From positions 1-34,836 of the forward strand of contig JAHLKH010000237.1 of assembly GCA_025526915.1 (NCBI GenBank): a DNA stretch of 34,836 bases. The letters are read 5' to 3'. Source of the DNA: Entophlyctis helioformis (taxonomy: Eukaryota > Chytridiomycota > Chytridiomycetes > Chytridiales > Chytriomycetaceae). The translations under genes and the position numbers were made by a program. Shown piece by piece: positions 26,596-34,836 of the stretch; the stretch's first letter is position 1; the number at the start of each line of letters is the position of its first letter. Below the pieces are notes generated by a model. It did not search any database, was not told where the DNA came from, and saw only the letters and a program-made list of their open reading frames with translations.

Positions 26596-29281
26596 TCACT
26601 GGAATGAAGAACGGCTCGCTCTCAGCACGGCACGCTTCCTGTTCATTCTCTCACTGATCGCCTGATCCACTCGCTGCTGCTGCTGCTGCTGCTCTTCTTC
26701 TCCGCTGCCCTTGTCAGGACCGTCAGCGCCGTTGGTCTGCTCAGCCTCGGGCGACGCAAGAAACGTCTCTGCCAGCAGATACATGCGCGTCTGTTCGTCC
26801 TTGACAGTCTGCTCCTTGTCAGCGTCTTGGCTCGGCCCATCGCCCAGATTGTCGGCATACTCTGCAGCCATGTCAGCACGAGTCAGTGCCGGCCCCAATG
26901 GTGTGCATACATCCAACCTACCTCGCAGTATGGCTTGAACAATCTCGGCAGGCACGCCCATCTCGTCCATGCGCGTCTGGACACCTGCGCGCACCTCGGC
27001 ACTGCCATAACATGCATACGCAACAACAATCGCAGTAACTTGCAGCGTGTACAGTCCCGCATCAAGCCGCTCAATGTACTCGCCAGCCTCGTCAGTCTCT
27101 TCGTCCTCGTCCTCGTCCTCATCGTCGTCATCGCCCCCTTCGCCGCCAGCAAAGCGTCGTCGTTGGGCACGCATCCGCGCTTGCCTCGCCTGTCTCGCCT
27201 GTCTGACCTGCCGCTTGCGCATCTCGATCGCCTCGTCGGCCTTGCGCACTCGGTCCAGGTACTCGGCAAACACGTCGAGCAGACGCCGGCTCTTCTCGCC
27301 GTCGTTCTCAATAAACTTGAACAGCAGGCGGTCGCGGTACTCGGGCATCTGCCCAAGACTCTTGAACAGCGAGAACATGATCGCAACCAGATGCTCTGCC
27401 ATAACTCATTGTCAGCATATGCAGACACAGATGCACATCCATCGCGGGCACGGGCAGAGTCTCACCGTCATCCTCGCGGGTAGAATAGTCTGGGTATTCC
27501 TTCTTGTACTTTTTGACTGCAGCCGCCTTTTTCATAAACGCTGAAAAGAGCGTTTTGAGGCCAAGAATGTCGACAAACCGCGCGGCGGCTGGCGTGACGG
27601 CAGCAGGACTGCCCATGAGCGCATGGTCAATCACCTTGACAGCACGCATCCTTGACATTTTCTTTTCTCTACATCCGGCATGACAAGGCCATGTCAGCTC
27701 AAACTCAAACTCAAGCTCGACTCAGCTCAGTCGAAGCCCAAGGCTGGCAAGAAGATTGCAGGCCACTCACTTGATCATGAGAAGCATGAGCTCAAGGCCC
27801 TCTGACTCGAGGATCTTGGGTTTGCCCTCGTCCTCGCCGACGCAGAGACACAGCACATCAAACACGTTTTCCATAAACTCGACCTCGTCCGCGTCCTTGG
27901 GGTCTTTGCGGCGGTAGGCAGCAAGCACGCGGAGCAGCGTGTCGACGCCGCCAAGATCAATGAGCCGGAGCCGGTTGGGCCGACTGGTCTGCAAAAGAAT
28001 GGCGAGCAGCTCAGAGGCGTACTGGCGCACCGAGTCAAATGCCTTGATGCCGATGCGCGCAAGGATCCATGGGATGATGCTCGATTCGTTGACGGCCCGC
28101 TCGGCAAGCGAGGGATTGATGGACACAAAGTTTTCAATCACGCCTGTCGACCGATGGGCAGCGCAAGTCAGCAAGCGTGGATGGCAGCAGCGGCAGATGC
28201 AGGCTTACTGAGCGTGTTGAAGATGCCTTCCTTGTCGTCGGATCGCTCCTCATTGAGACGGTTCAAGTTTTGCACAAGCAGCGGCAGCGCATCCGCGTCG
28301 ACCTGTTCCGCATCCAGACCGTCAGCCAGCAGCGATCAAGAATCGGCGCAAGGTGGCACGCAGCATGCACTCACGAGAGCATCGACAAGGACACGCATGC
28401 CATGCTGTCCCTCTTGCGACGTCTGGGCCACGACATCGTCGTCGGTCAGCTCGTCCACAAGCCCAACCGCAGCAATCGCAACGTCTGTGTTCTCGTGCGA
28501 CAAGAGCGCGAGCATCGACTGGCACGAGCCCAGCTCCACAAGCGCAGGGTACAGCTCGGGCACAGAGGACAGCGTGGTCATGGCCTTGATCTCTTCGGCG
28601 AGATCGGCCTCGGACTCGATGTACTTGAGCGGCTCGTCGGGGTACTTGACACGCAGCGAGCGGTTCTTTGTGATGGCCTTTTCGAAGCGGAGGACCATGC
28701 GCTTGAGACGGCTTATGTCGATGGCATCTGGAAGCTGGAGGGCCGGCCATGCAGTCGGTGAGCACAGCGGCCAGCATGGAGCCCAGGGCTTACCAGGGCC
28801 AGGTGCAGGACGACAGGCGCTGATGAACGAACCTCTTCGCCAGCATCGACAATGTCCTGAATGCGACGCTGTTCGGCGGTCAGCGCATCAGGAGATCTTG
28901 AGCCCGAGGAAGACAAGGCAGCCAAGGCAGACGACGACGACGCCGCGGACGGGCGAGAGCCGCCGACGCCCCAGCTCGCACGGAACTCTTCGTCGGACGA
29001 CTCGCGGATGGTGACGTCGCCGCCCTTCTTGGCGCGTTTGCTGCTGCCGCCGTTGCCTGCGACGTGATTGCCGTTCTCGTCAAAGTGGTCGTCGGCGCTG
29101 TCGGTGCCTGCGCCGGCAGGCTGCTTGCGCTTGCTGGCCCCGGCGCCTCCCGCAGACGCAGAGCCAGAAGACGCACCGGCGGGCCCGCTTGGCACCTGCG
29201 GCCGTTGGCGGCTGTCAGTCGCCTGCACGTTGGACGCACGGCAAGGCCCGCACGCACCTTGAAGATGGAGGCGAGGTCCAT
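26596..29281 (-). CDS. CTNNBL1: Beta-catenin-like protein 1, eight exons
   Basis: Exons on the minus strand are 29281-29258, 29195-28833, 28734-28375, 28302-28209, 28143-27771, 27668-27466, 27395-26922 and 26861-26596, about 718 residues. CTNNBL1 is an armadillo-repeat nuclear protein of the Prp19/CDC5L spliceosomal complex that binds nuclear-localisation sequences of splicing factors. Family segments match in order: RMVLRFEKAITKNRSLRVKY, SLLSHENTDV-type repeat LALLSHENTDVAIAAVGL, LLVQNLNRL, ASELLAILLQ, EFMENVFDVLCLC, EKKMSRMRAVKVIDHALMG, FVDILGLKTLFSAFMKKA, LLFKFIENDGEKSRRLL, ERLDAGLYTLQ and EYADNLGDG. The N-terminus holds a basic SKRAKK stretch. The C-terminus extends past the family end with Gln and charged residues. 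An ATG at 29311 is an alternative start. Confidence 0.95.
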
Positions 29282-29311
29282 GAAGTTGAGATCGACGGCA
29301 ACCTGGCGCAT

Positions 29312-29688
29312 CGACGACCTGCAGGCGTTTGGCAGGCGAGTGGCAGGCAGCCTGTCGATCTCTCTCTCTCTCTCTCTGATGTGGATCGGACGGCATGCGA
29401 TGCAGTCTCTTCATTGGGCAGCAGGCTGCTGCACAGGTCCATCAGCCGCAGTCAGTCAGCGAGTGCTTGTTGGGCCGCAATCGGTTCTTCAGGCCCGATA
29501 TTCATACAATTACCAAGGATTTTGGAGTTAAATTCGACCCAAGAGGCGACGAATGCAAGCCCACATATCACGTGATTGAAGGTTCGAGTCAGCAACGAGC
29601 ATGCGACGACCAGTGGGCGAGGCACATCCAACGAGGGTCTTACCTTCTATTGAAGTGACCCGTTAGGTCGATCGGGAGGTTCCCCGAT
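29312..29688. other. 3' flank of the Fanzor gene and 5' flank of CTNNBL1
   Basis: No coding frame is supported. Nearest CTNNBL1 is a CT run at about 29361-29378. From about 29480 to 29688 the DNA is more AT-rich than the host genes and can form structure: GAAGGT at 29578-29583 pairs with ACCTTC at 29642-29647, and a 6-bp hairpin follows at 29671-29688. In TnpB and Fanzor elements the guide RNA is transcribed from this side of the gene, so an omega RNA could lie here. That is inference, not seen. Confidence 0.35.
29671..29688 (-). ncRNA. Hairpin directly after the Fanzor stop codon
   Basis: ATCGGG at 29671-29676 pairs perfectly with CCCGAT at 29683-29688 around the 6-nt loop AGGTTC. On the Fanzor strand the hairpin begins at the nucleotide after the stop codon. 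It could be part of an omega-RNA scaffold, a 3'-end structure, or chance. Confidence 0.25.
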
Positions 29689-32200
29689 TCAAAGTGTTGT
29701 TGTTGGCAGACATGGCAGCATGATCTGATCCCATGAGGCCACATGCGACTTGAAGGGAAGCAGATCGGGTGACGGAGGCTGCTGGACGACAGGCTGATCA
29801 GGCGGTGTCGCGAGCAGCATGATGTGATGTTGTGCACGCCACTGGATGTCATGATGAGTTGCCTCGATGTCTGCAAGGTACTCTGGCGTGGCTGGATTGC
29901 TGTCAGGTGGCGTGTGCGTCAAGTAGAGCGGTCGTTGTCCATAGAGCAGATGCCACAGTGCGACCATTCCAATGTTGGTGGCTCCAAGAACGTCTCGGTG
30001 GTAGACAGTCTCGCAGTCTGTGCACTCGTAGCGTCGCAGGTTGGTGCGGTTCTCGTCTGGGATCCGCTGCTTGCACTGCGGGCACATCTGGCTGGTCAGG
30101 TTCTCGTTGCAGCGGTAGATCTGTGTGTGTGTGTTCATGATCGTGTGGTCAGTTGGTGCACAGATGGATGGATGGATGGATGGACAGCGTGGCATCAGAC
30201 GCACATAGGCATATCCAGACGACCGCAGATGCCTGATGAGAAACCTCTCAAACACAGCATGCCGGCCACCTTGGCCTGTAAAGTCGATGCCAAATGCCCA
30301 GACAACGGGGATGTCCTTCTCTGTTGGCTTGTCACAGCGGTCTTGAGACGCAGCTGATGCGCGCTTGCCAGTGGTCGATCCTGCCAGCTTCATGATGCCC
30401 TCAAGAGCGTTTCCGCGAATTGACATGCTGTTGCTGCGCTTGGTGAACCGCTTGGCCTTGACCTTCTGTGGAATGCCATGTCATGCCAAGCGGTCCAGTG
30501 TGATCAGCATGGCGATCAAGCAGCATGGCGGTCATGTCAATGGGCATCCAGAAACAGAGAAAACGTACCCGTGCATTCAGGAATGGCGAGCAGTACGCAT
30601 GGCAGCGCAGATCCCAAAAGGCTCTCTCGCCAGGCTTGACGTTTGGATCGGCATGCTTTGCTGTCTTGAATGCAATGGCCTCGTGGACGTCCGCAGCCTT
30701 GGCATATCGATTGTTGAGCCTGACACAAGAGACAAGCACTGTGAGTTGATCTGGTCAAGAGTGCGCGTGGCAGAGTCATTGCATGCATACCACCGCTGAA
30801 GGTCACGCTCAGCATGAAATACGCCAGAGGAGAGCACGTAGTTGGACTCGAGGGTATAGGTGAAGGTTGCCAGATCGACCAGCATGCTGGACGCGCCATA
30901 CAGGTACCGCTCGCCCCAATCAAAGCTGACAATACGCACAAACCGGTAGCCCTTGTTGGTGAACAACTTGTTGGCTTTGACAATGTTGAGCAATCGCTGC
31001 GAGGCGTAGAAGCTGAGCTTGCCCTGTCATGCCATGGCATGAGTGAGGAATGTGCAATGCATGTGCACCAATGCACGAGGTTGGCATGCAAGTGGCTTAC
31101 AGGATTGGTCGCTTTTGGCTTGGTGGCTGATGGGTCGGCAGGATCGGCAGCTGTGGATGGCATGTCAGTCGGTGTGGACAACAAGTGTGCGTCTGGATTG
31201 GCACAGCAACTCACATTCGCCATCCAAGTGATCATGCCCATCATGCCCATCATCAGCCTCATCGTCAGAATCATCATCATCATCATCATCATCAGGCATG
31301 CCATCAGCAAGGCTGGGCTGCTCGCCTAAAGATGCCATGTTGGAGCATGCAGATCAAGGCGGCAGTCAGAACCAATGTGTGCACCAAAGCATTCAAGCAC
31401 GCCACATACTGCGAGGCGACTCTGGACGGTTTGTGCGATAGTCCAGCGCCAATTGAAAGATGCTGTATCCGTCCGTCCGGAAGCTGCCCACCGCGGTCGG
31501 TTTGCTTGGACTTGCAGGAGGAAGACCATCGATCACGGCGTCTATAAACTCCTGGCGCTCCTTGCCAACCAGACCCTCGTGATCAGCCAGTTGCATCGCA
31601 TCAGCAATGACTGCGTCATTTGCTTGGACCTGCTCAAACACCTCCTTGTCGGCCTCGTCTGGCGTCTGATAGCGGCCTTTCTTGGGGCGGAGGCCGGGAA
31701 GGAGTATGTTGAGGATACAGAGCTCCTTGCCATTGCTGAACGCCTTCTTGATCGTCCTGTTGGATGACGCGAGGCCCAAGCTGGCTTTTTGGTAGTCTTG
31801 GATAAAAGTGGAGTGTTAGCATCATATCATACAAACATGGCATAAACAAGTGCGACCTACTGAGTACAGCAAGGAGCTGCAGTCGCAAGTATGCCAAAGC
31901 AGCACTTTGCTCGCCACGGATGCGATCATCACTACTCCCCATCACCGCCCAAAAGAGCGTTGTCTCGGTGATGAGGATGAATGGGTCGCGGCTGGCTGCT
32001 TGCGGGCACAGCTTGTTTGTCGTGCCAGCAAGCTTGGACAGCTCGTAAAAGATCACGATCTCTGACCGAGACACATCAGGCACAAGCGTCTTGAGCTCGT
32101 GCAGCTCTTGCGGGACTGTATCAATACCGCTGTCCTCAGTGGCTGAGGAAGAGCTGGATGCCGCGTCCTTGGTGGTGGCTGCCTTCCTGCCCCGTCGCTT
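29689..32200 (-). CDS. Fanzor (eukaryotic TnpB-like RNA-guided nuclease), RuvC and zinc-ribbon part, eight exons
   Basis: Exons on the minus strand are 32200-31861, 31796-31410, 31325-31215, 31150-31101, 31023-30791, 30719-30569, 30465-30205 and 30120-29689, about 654 residues in one frame. Fanzors are eukaryotic homologues of transposon TnpB and cut DNA guided by an omega RNA. RuvC-I is RFVRIVSFDWGERYLYGAS, with Asp codon 30921-30919. The block FGIDFTGQGGRHAVFERFLIRHLRSSGY leads into YRCNENLTSQMCPQC, with the Fanzor-type Glu at codon 30105-30103. Zinc cysteines CPQC and CTDC are followed by YHRDVLGATNI, with the final catalytic Asp at 29994-29992. The part before RuvC-I is largely helical, with an Asp run encoded by CAT repeats. 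Introns are 64-103 nt; one has TGCTAAC. All catalytic residues are present, so the gene looks intact. Upstream exons probably belong to the same protein. Confidence 0.88.
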
Positions 32201-34836
32201 CTTGGGCCGCCGCCCTTGTTGGCTGACGAAGAGGTGGACCGGCCCCGCTTGAGACTTGAGGTGGGAGGAGCAGTGTCCAAAGTGGCCAGCGGTGTGGCGT
32301 CCTCGATCGCCGGTGGTGTAGCGTCCTTGGCAGCCTTGGCAGCAGCAGCCTTGGCGGTCTTGAAAAGTGCCGCAATCCACACTCTCACATCCTCAATGGA
32401 TGCACTGGGCATCATCTTGAGGGCCGCAGTGACGGCCAGCTCAGACTGGCTAGAGATGTAGTGCCGCGCGAGCATGCCACACACATCCCTGGCCAGATTG
32501 CTGTAAATGTCATGCCTTGCATCCGCGCAAAGGCTGCCATCAAGCCTGTAGGGCAAGACAGCCTCCATAGTGCCCGCGTGCACAGCGTCTGCCGTCTGCG
32601 CACTTGTGTGCATCAAGGCCGACAGCTCTGCATCTGCCTGCATCACGGCTGACAGGATCGCGTCGGCCTGGATCGTCACCGTCTGCTGCGTCGCGTCCAT
32701 CATGTCGACATCCATCATGGCTGCTCGCATCGTGTCCATCTGTGCCATGTCCATCATGGCTGCTTGCCGCGTGTCTTTCTGGAACGCGTCGCTGTGCTCT
32801 GTGGCCGCCTGCTGCATTGCATCAATCAGTGACATGTCCATCAGCATCGTGCACGTCTGCATCATGTCCATCCGTACCGTGTCATCCTGCAGCTTGGCTG
32901 CGTTGGTTTGCAGCACCCTCCGCGTCCAGGTGCGATGGATCGTCATTTGCATGACTGTTACGATCCAGGAGTGGATGGCATGCTTTGTTGCTTGTGGCTG
33001 CACCATCATGCTGTCCGCCAGGACATAGCCAAGATGGCGCAGCAGCATGTCCACAGCACCGCCTCCACCTGATATACTGCTGGTGAGGGCCGTAAGCAGC
33101 TCATTTGCTGATGGAACTGCTGCTGCTGCTGGTGGTGGTGGCGGTTGGACGGCTGAAGATGAAGCGCCGGTGCTGCTGGCTGCTGTCGGCTGATTGTGCA
33201 CATCATGCTCGTCCTGGATGCATGGGTCGTCAGGCTGCACAGGCAGCTCGTGCTCATCGTGCTCATCGTGCTCGTCCTGCTCGTCCTGATTGTCCTGCTC
33301 GTCCTGCTCGTCCTGATTGTCGTGCTCGTCCTGCTCGTCCTGATCGTCGAGGTCGCCATGCATGTTGGGTTGCTTGGCAATCTTGGCAGTATCAAAGGCG
33401 CAGATCTTGAGAGCCGTGTCACTCTCGAGAGTCACCAAGCTGCCATAGCGAGGGATGTTTGTGTCGCTGCTGTGCGGGCCGGTGCCGTACATGTGCCAAA
33501 CAATGATGCCCTGCTTGTGAACGCATCCACCTGACAAGAGCGTCGCGCTCTCGTCCTCATCAAAGTCCTCGGGGTTGACATAGTAATACTGCGTCAGCTT
33601 GCCTTGGCTTGCCTCCAGGACACAGTACTCCAGAGGCAGAGGCGCGTCTGCATTCAGCTTGACCAGATCCGCGACCATGGCGCCGATCAAGGCAAGGGCA
33701 GCACGCCACAAGCCGGCCGTGAAATAGTAGACTGTGAGGGTGGTGTCGTGGCTGATTGAACTGGGTGTCTGCTCGGCGAGTGGTGTCTTGGTTTGGGGCC
33801 CAAAAAACTTGGTGTTTGCGAGATCGCATGACTGCATCTCCTGCATACCACACAAGTCAGCATCCACAAAGCCAAGCAAACAGAGCAGCATGCCGATCAA
33901 ACCCCATACCGCCATTTCGACAATCTGCTCAGGGCGGCTGTGTGCATTGCCTTTAGGTCTTGGCTGTCCTTTGGGATGGGTGGCCGTGGCAAGTGTCATG
34001 ACTGGCATCGCAATCATGCGGCCGAGCTTTGCAAGCTTCTGACGAGTTGCCACTCGACTGCCAGCAACCCATCTGTGGCATGACACACGTGTCAGCAAGC
34101 ACATTCAAGGCACATGACATGCCATATGTCGCGTACGCCTTCTTCTTGCCAACAGTTCCAGCCTTGCGAGCACGCAGGCCTGACTTCTTCTTGTTCTCTC
34201 TGATGATCTCCTGTAGTGTGGCCTTCTCTTTTTTCTTGGCACGCTCCTTTGTGTGCGCAGCCCGCTTGGCTGCCGTGAATTGGAATGGCGCCTGTGACGG
34301 TTGGATGCAGCATCAGGCGGCCATTCCATGTGCACCAAACACAGCCATAATCGCCAAGGGTGCACCAAACTCACCGTTGTCTCAGTGTCGGCAAGATCGC
34401 CAACGGGAAAGGTCTTGGAGCATGCCAGTGCTGCGAAGATGTTGTTGGACAACTGTGGTGGCTTGGGCGGCGGTGGAGGAGGACCAACCTGTGGAGTGGG
34501 ATGGTGAGCAATCGCGCCAAATCATTCCATGCACATGCAGTCAGTGGAAGTCGAGACGCACTGCACTTTGCTCAATGATGGACTGCAGCAGGGCGACGGC
34601 CTTTTGGCGCTGATTGATGAGTGTCGGCGGTTTGGCGTTTTCTGGATGTGGACCTATGGGGTGCTCCAGGAAATACAGCCAGGCTGACGCCTTGTCGTGG
34701 ATAGCAGCGACAGTGGATCGCGGTGCAACTCGCGTGGTCATCCTGCCGTGGTACTCGACTTTCTGCGTCTCTGTGTCCAGTACTATGCATTCAACACAAA
34801 TGGATCTGTGAGTGGATGCTGTTGAATCATTTCAAT
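32053..34836 (-). CDS. Unrecognised long N-terminal region of the Fanzor protein, or separate upstream gene; cut by window edge
   Basis: Exons on the minus strand are 34805-34562 (5' border uncertain), 34488-34375, 34291-34119 and a long exon from 34072, together more than 730 residues. The frame starts CVECIVLDTETQKVEYHGRM, then a Pro run, a Lys-rich helix (KERAKKKEKATLQEIIRENKK), a hydrophobic stretch (MAVWGLIGMLLCLLGF), a compact middle part with YYYVNPEDFDEDESATLL and GIIVWHMYGTGPHSSDTN, Asp-Glu-Gln-His repeats, a Met/Ala/Asp-rich helical region, and a basic tail. I do not recognise a domain. It joins the Fanzor exons either by a 188-nt intron (32201-32388, donor GTGAGA, acceptor CCCAAG) or across a frame break near 32206-32218. 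If neither is used, this frame stops at 32053 and is a separate gene. The start codon lies beyond the window. Confidence 0.6.
33243..33352. repeat. Tandem repeat encoding Asp-Glu-Gln/His/Asn
   Basis: Imperfect 9- and 18-bp units (CTCGTCCTG, CTCATCGTG, ATTGTCCTG on the plus strand) inside the long upstream exon of the Fanzor locus. On the coding strand they give repeats of DEQ, DEH and DNQ, a strongly acidic low-complexity stretch. Confidence 0.85.

What the first reader, a model, noticed from the sequence alone, without database searches (positions are those of the whole stretch)
29689..32200. Intact, intron-bearing Fanzor RNA-guided nuclease in a fungal-type genome
Eight exons join in frame to give RuvC-I (SFDWGERYLYG), the Fanzor glutamate segment (NENLTSQMC), a CxxC..CxxC ribbon and HRDVLGATNI. 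No stop or missing catalytic residue was found. Known Fanzors act with an omega RNA from the gene's flank. Splicing with host-type signals means the gene has been resident or adapted rather than a raw bacterial insertion.
Basis: partly seen in the sequence, partly recalled or inferred. Interest (0 to 1): 0.92.

Follow-up and report, generated by a model that had tools for sequence, protein, structure and literature searches.

The report
Fanzor-type nuclease transposon, one broken copy
This stretch of a chytrid fungus genome holds one damaged copy of a large, many-copy jumping gene that encodes a Fanzor-like enzyme, of the kind that cuts DNA under the guidance of RNA, with an unusual active-site motif and unusually uniform introns.

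Summary
The nuclease is real: eight exons (seven GT-AG introns) on the minus strand join in frame and carry the RuvC Asp, a Glu six residues before a CxxC..CxxC ribbon, and HRD. "Intact" is not supported. In close copies the frame starts upstream at ATG 34104, with about 630 more codons; the window lacks one base near 32,208 that 15 of 15 close copies have, possibly an assembly error, and its contig ends inside the element.

The gene sits at the 3' end of a ~9-kb transposon with 23-bp inverted repeats and 8-bp target duplications. In this genome 150 of 150 scored places exceed the zinc-domain cut-off. Public partial models name the organism: Entophlyctis helioformis, a chytrid.

RuvC-I reads D-W-G in 31 of 31 readable copies, not the D-P-G reported as near-exclusive to Fanzors. 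A conserved block between stop codon and element end is the guide-RNA candidate; folding gives it little support.

Unexpected: introns vary less than replacement sites, and copies are fine mosaics; cause unresolved. New variant of a known kind.

The parts
29492..34836 (-). Transposon copy, 3' part; the 5' end lies beyond the contig end
   Evidence: Ten other copies match the whole stretch at 93-97%; another copy is ~9 kb, C172:20698-29705
29492..29514 (-). 3' terminal inverted repeat (19 of 23 bases match the 5' repeat of other copies, counted by eye)
   Evidence: in a DNA search 28 of 40 scored matches end exactly at 29492 and the others within 4 bases of it
29492..29688 (-). Noncoding block from stop codon to element end; guide-RNA (omega RNA) candidate
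   Evidence: Alignment of 42 copies; fold z-score -0.03; 2 of 40 predicted pairs with compensatory change; position by analogy with known Fanzors
29671..29688 (-). Conserved hairpin right after the stop codon
   Evidence: Each of its 7 pairs kept in 40 or 41 of 42 aligned copies; low diversity
29689..30120 (-). Exon 8: Glu at six residues before the ribbon (30105-30103), C4 zinc ribbon (30084-30013), RuvC-III Asp (29994-29992), stop
30121..30204 (-). Intron 7
   Evidence: public model P0004 joins the same residues
30205..30465 (-). Exon 7
30466..30568 (-). Intron 6
   Evidence: public model P0001 joins the same residues
30569..30719 (-). Exon 6
30720..30790 (-). Intron 5
   Evidence: public model P0001 joins the same residues
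30791..31023 (-). Exon 5: RuvC-I, Asp of D-W-G at 30921-30919
31024..31100 (-). Intron 4, 95-99% identical to the window in the distant copies that cover it
31101..31150 (-). Exon 4
31151..31214 (-). Intron 3
31215..31325 (-). Exon 3 (acidic repeat)
31326..31409 (-). Intron 2
   Evidence: public model P0007 joins at the corresponding place
31410..31796 (-). Exon 2
31797..31860 (-). Intron 1
   Evidence: public model P0007 joins the same residues
31861..34104 (-). Exon 1 as modelled from relatives, with the ATG at 34104-34102 and an N-terminal region of about 630 codons without a Pfam family
32205..32212 (-). Frame break: one base fewer than in 15 of 15 close copies

Best explanation
A copy, frame-broken as assembled, of a high-copy TIR DNA transposon of the chytrid Entophlyctis helioformis that carries a large Fanzor-like (eukaryotic TnpB-type) nuclease gene at its 3' end. 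Shown by sequence: element ends, inverted repeats, 8-bp target duplications, eight-exon gene, conserved catalytic residues, upstream start codon, private frame break. Inferred from characterised Fanzors: an RNA read from the element's 3' end through the inverted repeat and target duplication into the flank guides the nuclease, and cutting of matching empty sites or sister copies favours repair that copies the element back, so the gene helps the transposon persist. Inferred: the transposase acts in trans, because none was recognised in the element. The window copy probably makes no full-length nuclease.
For: Spliced frame and motifs. Catalytic D, E, D and four Cys unchanged in 30 of 30 copies that cover all seven sites. 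The 37 bases starting at the Glu codon do not vary among 23 copies, the lowest of 1959 windows. Start codon and private deletion. Element extent and shared ends. TIR in 19 of 20 fetched 5' ends. Duplications of 8, 8 and 7 of 8 bases at three copies, and CA at right-flank position 1 in 17 of 37 and left-flank position -8 in 8 of 19 flanks. Copy number. Organism.
Against: RuvC-I is D-W-G, not D-P-G, in 31 of 31 readable copies; the Asp-Glu distance (183) is outside the published Fanzor pattern of 120-160; a Glu 51 residues before the ribbon is also kept in 30 of 31 copies, so a canonical TnpB-type Glu is not excluded. No solved Fanzor matched. Five of ten copies with both ends on hand show no target duplication. 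The guide-RNA candidate shows no fold better than shuffles. The model of one piece had pLDDT 42, so no fold was shown.
Confidence: 0.6

Rival explanations
1. The window copy is in truth uninterrupted: the one-base deletion is a sequencing or assembly error and the locus makes a nuclease of about 1,280 residues.
For: One-base gaps occur in many copies of the alignment, as an error-prone long-read assembly would give (inference). The rest of the window's exon chain has no other stop. The deletion is private (15 of 15 close copies lack it).
Against: No reads can be looked at here; 12 of 15 close copies are also interrupted, so broken copies are common if the sequence is right.
Confidence: 0.3
2. 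Not a Fanzor1 in the strict sense but a separate eukaryotic capture of a TnpB with a D-hydrophobic-G RuvC-I motif, which works the same way.
For: D-W-G in 31 of 31 readable copies; published tree (passage) splits proteins with the alternative Glu into a D-hydrophobic-G clade and a D-P-G clade that holds the Fanzors; a Glu at the canonical distance is also conserved.
Against: The published statement is 'near exclusively', so single exceptions may exist. The TIR transposon, introns and large N-terminal region resemble Fanzor1 elements. No prokaryotic relative was found, though both searches were limited.
Confidence: 0.25
3. The family no longer works as a guided nuclease: it is a decaying passenger, or the protein has another role such as regulating its transposase.
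For: 12 of 15 close copies interrupted; no structural signal in the RNA candidate.
Against: Catalytic and zinc residues unchanged in 30 of 30 copies; dN below dS in most of the exon groups compared, though not in the last exon of every pair; 3 of 15 copies without interruption in the part read.
Confidence: 0.15

Closest known systems
SPu-1 / SpuFz1 of Spizellomyces punctatus (Fanzor1; PMC3627910 and PMC10432273, passages)
   Same: Fungal host (also a chytrid; lineage recalled), TIR element with the nuclease as the only recognised gene, several copies of which some are intact
   Different: SPu-1 is ~2.1 kb with one 633-residue frame, 33-bp TIRs and TA duplications, 17 full-length copies; here ~9 kb, eight exons, about 1,280 residues, 23-bp TIRs, 8-bp duplications, 150 scored places
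CRe-1, -2, -3 of Chlamydomonas reinhardtii (Fanzor1 in Helitrons; PMC3627910, passages)
   Same: Multi-exon Fanzor1 genes (5 or 10 exons), high copy (150 loci given for CRe-1), frequent 5' damage
   Different: Helitron ends, no TIR, duplications of variable length; here TIRs and an 8-bp duplication
IS4-type Fanzor1 element ESvi-1B of Ectocarpus (PMC3627910, passage)
   Same: TIRs and an 8-bp target duplication
MCi-2 of Mucor circinelloides (PMC3627910, passage)
   Same: Copies differ in their 5' regions, as subfamilies do here
   Different: No recognisable TIRs, 11 or 12-bp duplications, 11 copies
SfAV Fanzor1 (PMC10711439, passages)
   Same: TIR element; its guide RNA runs through TIR and duplication into the flank, the model used here
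   Different: 4-bp duplication (PMC3627910), two copies, virus of insects; RNA shown there, not here
LaTranC (PDB 9jfq)
   Same: Best match among solved structures, over the zinc ribbon and RuvC-III
   Different: E 0.29-0.35, not significant

Membership tests
Fanzor as named by Bao and Jurka 2013 (PMC3627910) | Motif D-X(125,275)-[TS][TS]-X-X-[C4 zinc finger]-X(5,50)-RD | tested here: met
   D to TS 189 residues, TSQMC, C4, HRD
Fanzor as named by Bao and Jurka 2013 (PMC3627910) | Eukaryotic host and carried by a transposable element | tested here: met
   Chytrid; TIRs, duplications, many copies
Fanzor fingerprint of Yoon et al. 2023 (PMC10711439) | RuvC-I motif D-P-G ('near exclusively') | tested here: not met
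   D-W-G in 31 of 31 readable copies, 6 of 37 not covering it
Fanzor fingerprint of Yoon et al. 2023 (PMC10711439) | Alternative Glu six residues before the zinc motif instead of ~50 | tested here: inconclusive
   Glu at six residues in 33 of 33 readable copies; but a Glu 51 residues before the motif is also kept in 30 of 31, so which one is catalytic is not shown
Fanzor fingerprint of Yoon et al. 2023 (PMC10711439) | Search pattern: 120-160 residues between RuvC-I and the Glu; C-x(12,18)-C; x(4,8) to Asp | tested here: not met
   183 residues to the Glu is outside; 16 and 6 are inside
Fanzor / TnpB | RNA-guided DNA cleavage with an RNA from the element's 3' end | not testable with these tools
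   Only a conserved 3' block was found; z -0.03, 2 of 40 pairs compensatory
Fanzor / TnpB | RuvC fold | tested here: inconclusive
   AlphaFold2 on a public partial model, pLDDT 42; the spliced window protein was not eligible
Bacterial TnpB (NCBIfam NF040570, NF038281, NF038280) | Whole-protein score over the curated cut-off | tested here: not met
   28.3 bits against 100; only the last ~46 residues of the domain match
TIR cut-and-paste DNA transposon | Terminal inverted repeats and fixed-length target duplication | tested here: met
   TIR at 19 of 20 fetched 5' ends; 8-bp duplication at 3 of 10 copies with both ends, and CA bias at matching offsets
TIR cut-and-paste DNA transposon | Recognisable transposase in the element | tested here: not met
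   Six-frame Pfam scan of the 5' half of the C172 copy found none; one split by introns or of unknown kind is not excluded

The most novel reading that the evidence does not exclude
A chytrid carries well over a hundred copies of a eukaryotic RNA-guided nuclease transposon whose RuvC-I lies outside the D-P-G Fanzor fingerprint, and these copies behave as one freely recombining pool: variants are shuffled on a scale of tens of bases, introns are homogenised and old exon variants are kept, perhaps because the nuclease's own guided cuts are repaired from sister copies and because selection favours diverse exons (for example escape from RNA silencing, which sees only spliced RNA).
Probability: 0.15. 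Interest if true: 0.8.

Novelty: new variant of a known kind. Interest (0 to 1): 0.5.

Why it matters
If the D-W-G motif belongs to a working enzyme, the D-P-G fingerprint does not bound the eukaryotic TnpB-type nucleases, and how often eukaryotes took them up is open again. A large, intron-bearing family with broken and unbroken copies side by side in one fungus is a natural test of whether such nucleases help their transposon to persist. The contrast of uniform introns, diverse exons and near-free shuffling among copies can be measured, and would directly test whether RNA-guided cuts drive copying between elements.

Tried and rejected
Without result: homology search with the 654-residue spliced protein (7995 candidates scored, none at E <= 0.001); IMG/VR scan with the RuvC-TNB alignment (43 pattern matches, none a relative); Rfam on 29300-34836 (one match at E 0.77, far below its gathering score); solved structures (nothing significant); structure prediction of public model P0001 with six further public models (pLDDT 42), after which I made no fold search. 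The spliced window protein was not handed to the predictor because its rule excludes spliced products. The third protein search and all metagenome and genome-contig scans were not used.

Rejected: that the ~258-bp insertions inside several copies are shortened forms of this element. They begin TG and end CA, and several lie within a few kb of reverse-transcriptase matches, so I read them as LTRs. Rejected for lack of support: insertion of copies at one preferred site. The window's adjoining 3.5 kb has no second full match, nor has the 5' flank of the C36 copy; its 3' flank, however, is shared with C60, C122 and C408 at 98-100%. Pairs of contigs that share flanks may be haplotypes or duplications; I did not settle which.

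Control that failed: LTR copies as a yardstick for shuffling gave 4 informative sites in 23 sequences, so whether the mosaic pattern is peculiar to this family is open.

Rows left out: one search used 23 of 37 projected copies (coverage filter, and L002, L020, L028, L033 removed by hand as duplicates). One search used 42 of the 51 three-prime blocks (L001, L007, L014, L020, L023, L028, L033, L068, L074 left out, mostly near-duplicates). In one search the right flanks starting ATTTGCC (a longer 3' form, 7 of 51) and L023 were left out, and the 37 include one near-duplicate pair (L073, L074). One search examined 15 close copies (L010-L024), none of the distant ones. In one search, four of twelve listed close copies were printed.

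Own errors: I first guessed Blastocladiomycota from base composition; the public models show a chytrid. The literature search rests on that guess.

Full report
What was checked. The window is contig C237 of a 29.6-Mb, 482-contig genome. The minus-strand reading of 32200-29689 was rebuilt from the sequence: seven GT-AG introns of 64, 84, 64, 77, 71, 103 and 84 bp join eight exons into 655 codons with one stop, at the end. PF07282 matches at 43.4 bits against a cut-off of 26.3. Nine public proteins match the RuvC-TNB alignment; all nine come from Entophlyctis helioformis and are named hypothetical. Contig lengths given there (287210, 128172, 22057, 202881) equal those of C5, C63, C307 and C22, so this is very probably the window's own genome. 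NCBI taxonomy places the species in Chytridiomycota. None of the nine models joins RuvC-I to the zinc ribbon, but compared by eye they use several of the predicted junctions: introns 1, 2 and 4 in P0007, 2, 4, 5 and 6 in P0001, 7 in P0004. Other junctions in these models differ. I do not know whether the models rest on RNA data.

Where the gene starts, and why this copy is not intact. A 683-codon frame begins at an ATG at 34104, directly after an in-frame TGA. In the distant copy L037 residues 1-122 and 125-237 are 46% and 47% identical, starting at the same Met; that copy has a stop in this stretch. Spliced reading of 15 close copies (L010-L024) gives MCLLT at the start in 15 of 15, and one base more than the window near 32,208 in 15 of 15. 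Two copies read to their stop (1,285 and 1,266 residues), a third shows no stop in the 1,212 codons aligned, and 12 of 15 have an early stop, mostly after further indels. The window's long frame ends about 50 codons after the deletion, before any nuclease residue. A shorter product from the in-frame ATG near 31,942 is possible but unsupported. One-base gaps are common among the copies, so an assembly error remains a fair rival.

The element. A DNA search with the window's 5.5 kb found ten other copies along the whole 29492-34836 stretch at 93-97%, and partial or diverged ones. In a search with the 3' end, 28 of 40 scored matches stop exactly at 29492 and the rest within 4 bases; in 7 of 51 three-prime blocks the element seems to run on for some 47 bases (ATTTGCCGG...). 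The 5' end lies beyond the window: in other copies it is the 23-bp repeat GGCCCGGTTCTCATACCATTACC followed by a variable number of 28-bp repeats, which matches the 3' end as an inverted repeat in 19 of 23 bases. Of 20 five-prime ends fetched, 19 have it (five with changes in the first six bases) and C122 does not; of three fetched earlier, C24 has it and C172 and C36 do not. Ten copies have both ends on hand. C24 and C395 show 8 of 8 duplicated bases and C297 7 of 8. C172 and C36 show longer direct repeats (15 bp; about 33 bp with two mismatches) beside damaged 5' ends. C60, C140, C239, C198 and C122 show none (by eye). The flanks as a population give the same length: CA stands at right-flank position 1 in 17 of 37 flanks (binomial P 1.6e-11) and at position -8 of the left flank in 8 of 19 (9.4e-6); no other offset listed exceeds 7 of 37 or 4 of 19. 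The C172 copy is about 9 kb. Six-frame Pfam scans of its 5' half found no transposase.

Copy number. PF07282 gave 205 first-look candidates; 150 were scored and all 150 exceeded the family cut-off. The 3' end gave 208 first-look candidates and the 5' end 138, with 40 scored in each. Some contigs share flanks, so some copies may be haplotypes counted twice. Up to hundreds of copies of Fanzor elements are already on record (PMC10711439, passage).

Is it a Fanzor? It meets the naming motif of Bao and Jurka 2013 (PMC3627910; passages). Against the fingerprint of Yoon et al. 2023 (PMC10711439; passages): RuvC-I reads D-W-G in 31 of 31 copies that cover it, not D-P-G; the distance to the Glu is 183 residues against their pattern of 120-160; a Glu stands six residues before the ribbon in 33 of 33 readable copies, but another, 51 residues before it, is kept in 30 of 31. 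The second lies ahead of the hydrophobic stretch IPVVWAFG, which makes it the less likely catalytic residue in my judgement, but spacing alone does not exclude it. Their tree, as the passage describes it, puts proteins with the alternative Glu and D-hydrophobic-G in a clade apart from the D-P-G clade. No sequence match decides between a derived Fanzor1 and a separate capture. I call it a Fanzor-like eukaryotic TnpB homologue, subgroup unresolved. Literature: Fanzor with 'DPG motif' gave one paper, Yoon et al.; Fanzor with 'chytrid' gave one, Saito et al. 2023, PMC10432273 (passages); Fanzor with 'Blastocladi' gave none; Fanzor with 'gene conversion' gave five, four listed, seen as listing only; Fanzor with intron, fungi and copies gave four, three listed, seen as listing only. 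Ten papers name E. helioformis (listing only). The library holds open papers only, so absence from it is weak evidence. That other Fanzors have introns outside Chlamydomonas, and the paper of Jiang et al. 2023, are recalled and were not seen.

Guide-RNA candidate. From stop codon to element end lie 197 bases. The first 37 after the stop are among the less variable stretches of the gene (107 of 1959 windows are lower), and their hairpin is kept in 40 or 41 of 42 copies at each pair. Against a structured RNA: the block with ten more bases folds no better than shuffles (z -0.03), 2 of 40 predicted pairs show compensatory change, and parts of the block are highly variable. By analogy with the SfAV Fanzor1, whose RNA runs past TIR and duplication (PMC10711439, passage), the RNA here would end in the flank. 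This is inference.

An anomaly. Between the window and seven distant copies, introns 3-5 differ by 0.03-0.07 per site, while synonymous sites of exons 3-5 differ by 0.23-0.48 and replacement sites by 0.14-0.20. Among 23 copies, diversity from exon 3 on is 0.051 in introns (95% interval over sites 0.040-0.063), 0.079 at 0-fold sites (0.068-0.089) and 0.118 at 4-fold sites (0.096-0.140). Intron 6 (0.075) is not lower than the 0-fold sites of its neighbours (0.061-0.068). Association between variable sites falls from r2 0.54 within 5 bp to 0.16 at 20-40 bp and 0.09-0.14 beyond. Within 22 close copies it is 0.07-0.19 at 10-40 bp outside the first 1.5 kb examined, where it is 0.62 and still 0.31 at 40-160 bp. 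So copies are fine mosaics of shared variants, and introns are on the whole more uniform than exons. Constraint on introns, homogenisation with exon variants held by selection, and effects of repeat assembly are all open. In the four close copies printed, introns 1-2 differ from the window as much as synonymous sites of exons 1-2 do (0.02-0.03 against 0.02-0.04), which speaks against simple intron constraint there. The LTR control was uninformative.

Mechanism, step by step. Shown by sequence: TIR transposon, 8-bp duplication, intron-bearing nuclease gene, conserved active-site residues, frame break here. Inferred from characterised relatives: 3'-end RNA as guide, cleavage of matching sites, benefit to the transposon. 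Inferred only: transposase in trans; nuclease-driven exchange among copies.

Verdict. A real and unusual relative of the Fanzors in a high-copy chytrid transposon; the copy reported as intact is broken as assembled. Interest 0.5. The confidences of the best explanation and its rivals overlap and need not sum to one.

Noticed in passing
window introns 31860-30121 and copies L001-L038: Introns 3-5 and 7 of the nuclease gene are less diverse among copies than neighbouring synonymous and replacement sites, and copies are mosaics on a scale of tens of bases.
   Followed up: partly
L031, L034, L035; C254:15470-15727 and other places: LTR-like insertions of about 258 bp (TG..CA, with an internal ~50-bp duplication) inside several copies; 154 first-look candidates, 40 scored. 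Reverse-transcriptase matches: 199 candidates, 150 scored.
   Followed up: partly
L012, L013, L014, L028 (C36, C60, C122, C408): Four contigs share the 3' flank of the element at 98-100%, while the 5' flank of the C36 copy has no second full match; duplication, haplotypes or carried-along flank.
   Followed up: partly
L039 7699-7780; L041 7672-7760: Variable numbers of a 28-bp repeat follow the 5' inverted repeat; role unknown.
   Followed up: no
window 28336-28887, minus strand: A CTNNBL (catenin-beta-like) host gene, PF08216 E 3.2e-44, lies near the element's 3' end.
   Followed up: no
window 32207-34104, minus strand: The long N-terminal region of the nuclease gene matches no Pfam family above its cut-off and holds variable acidic repeats (DEQDEH) in which copies differ in length and frame.
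   Followed up: partly
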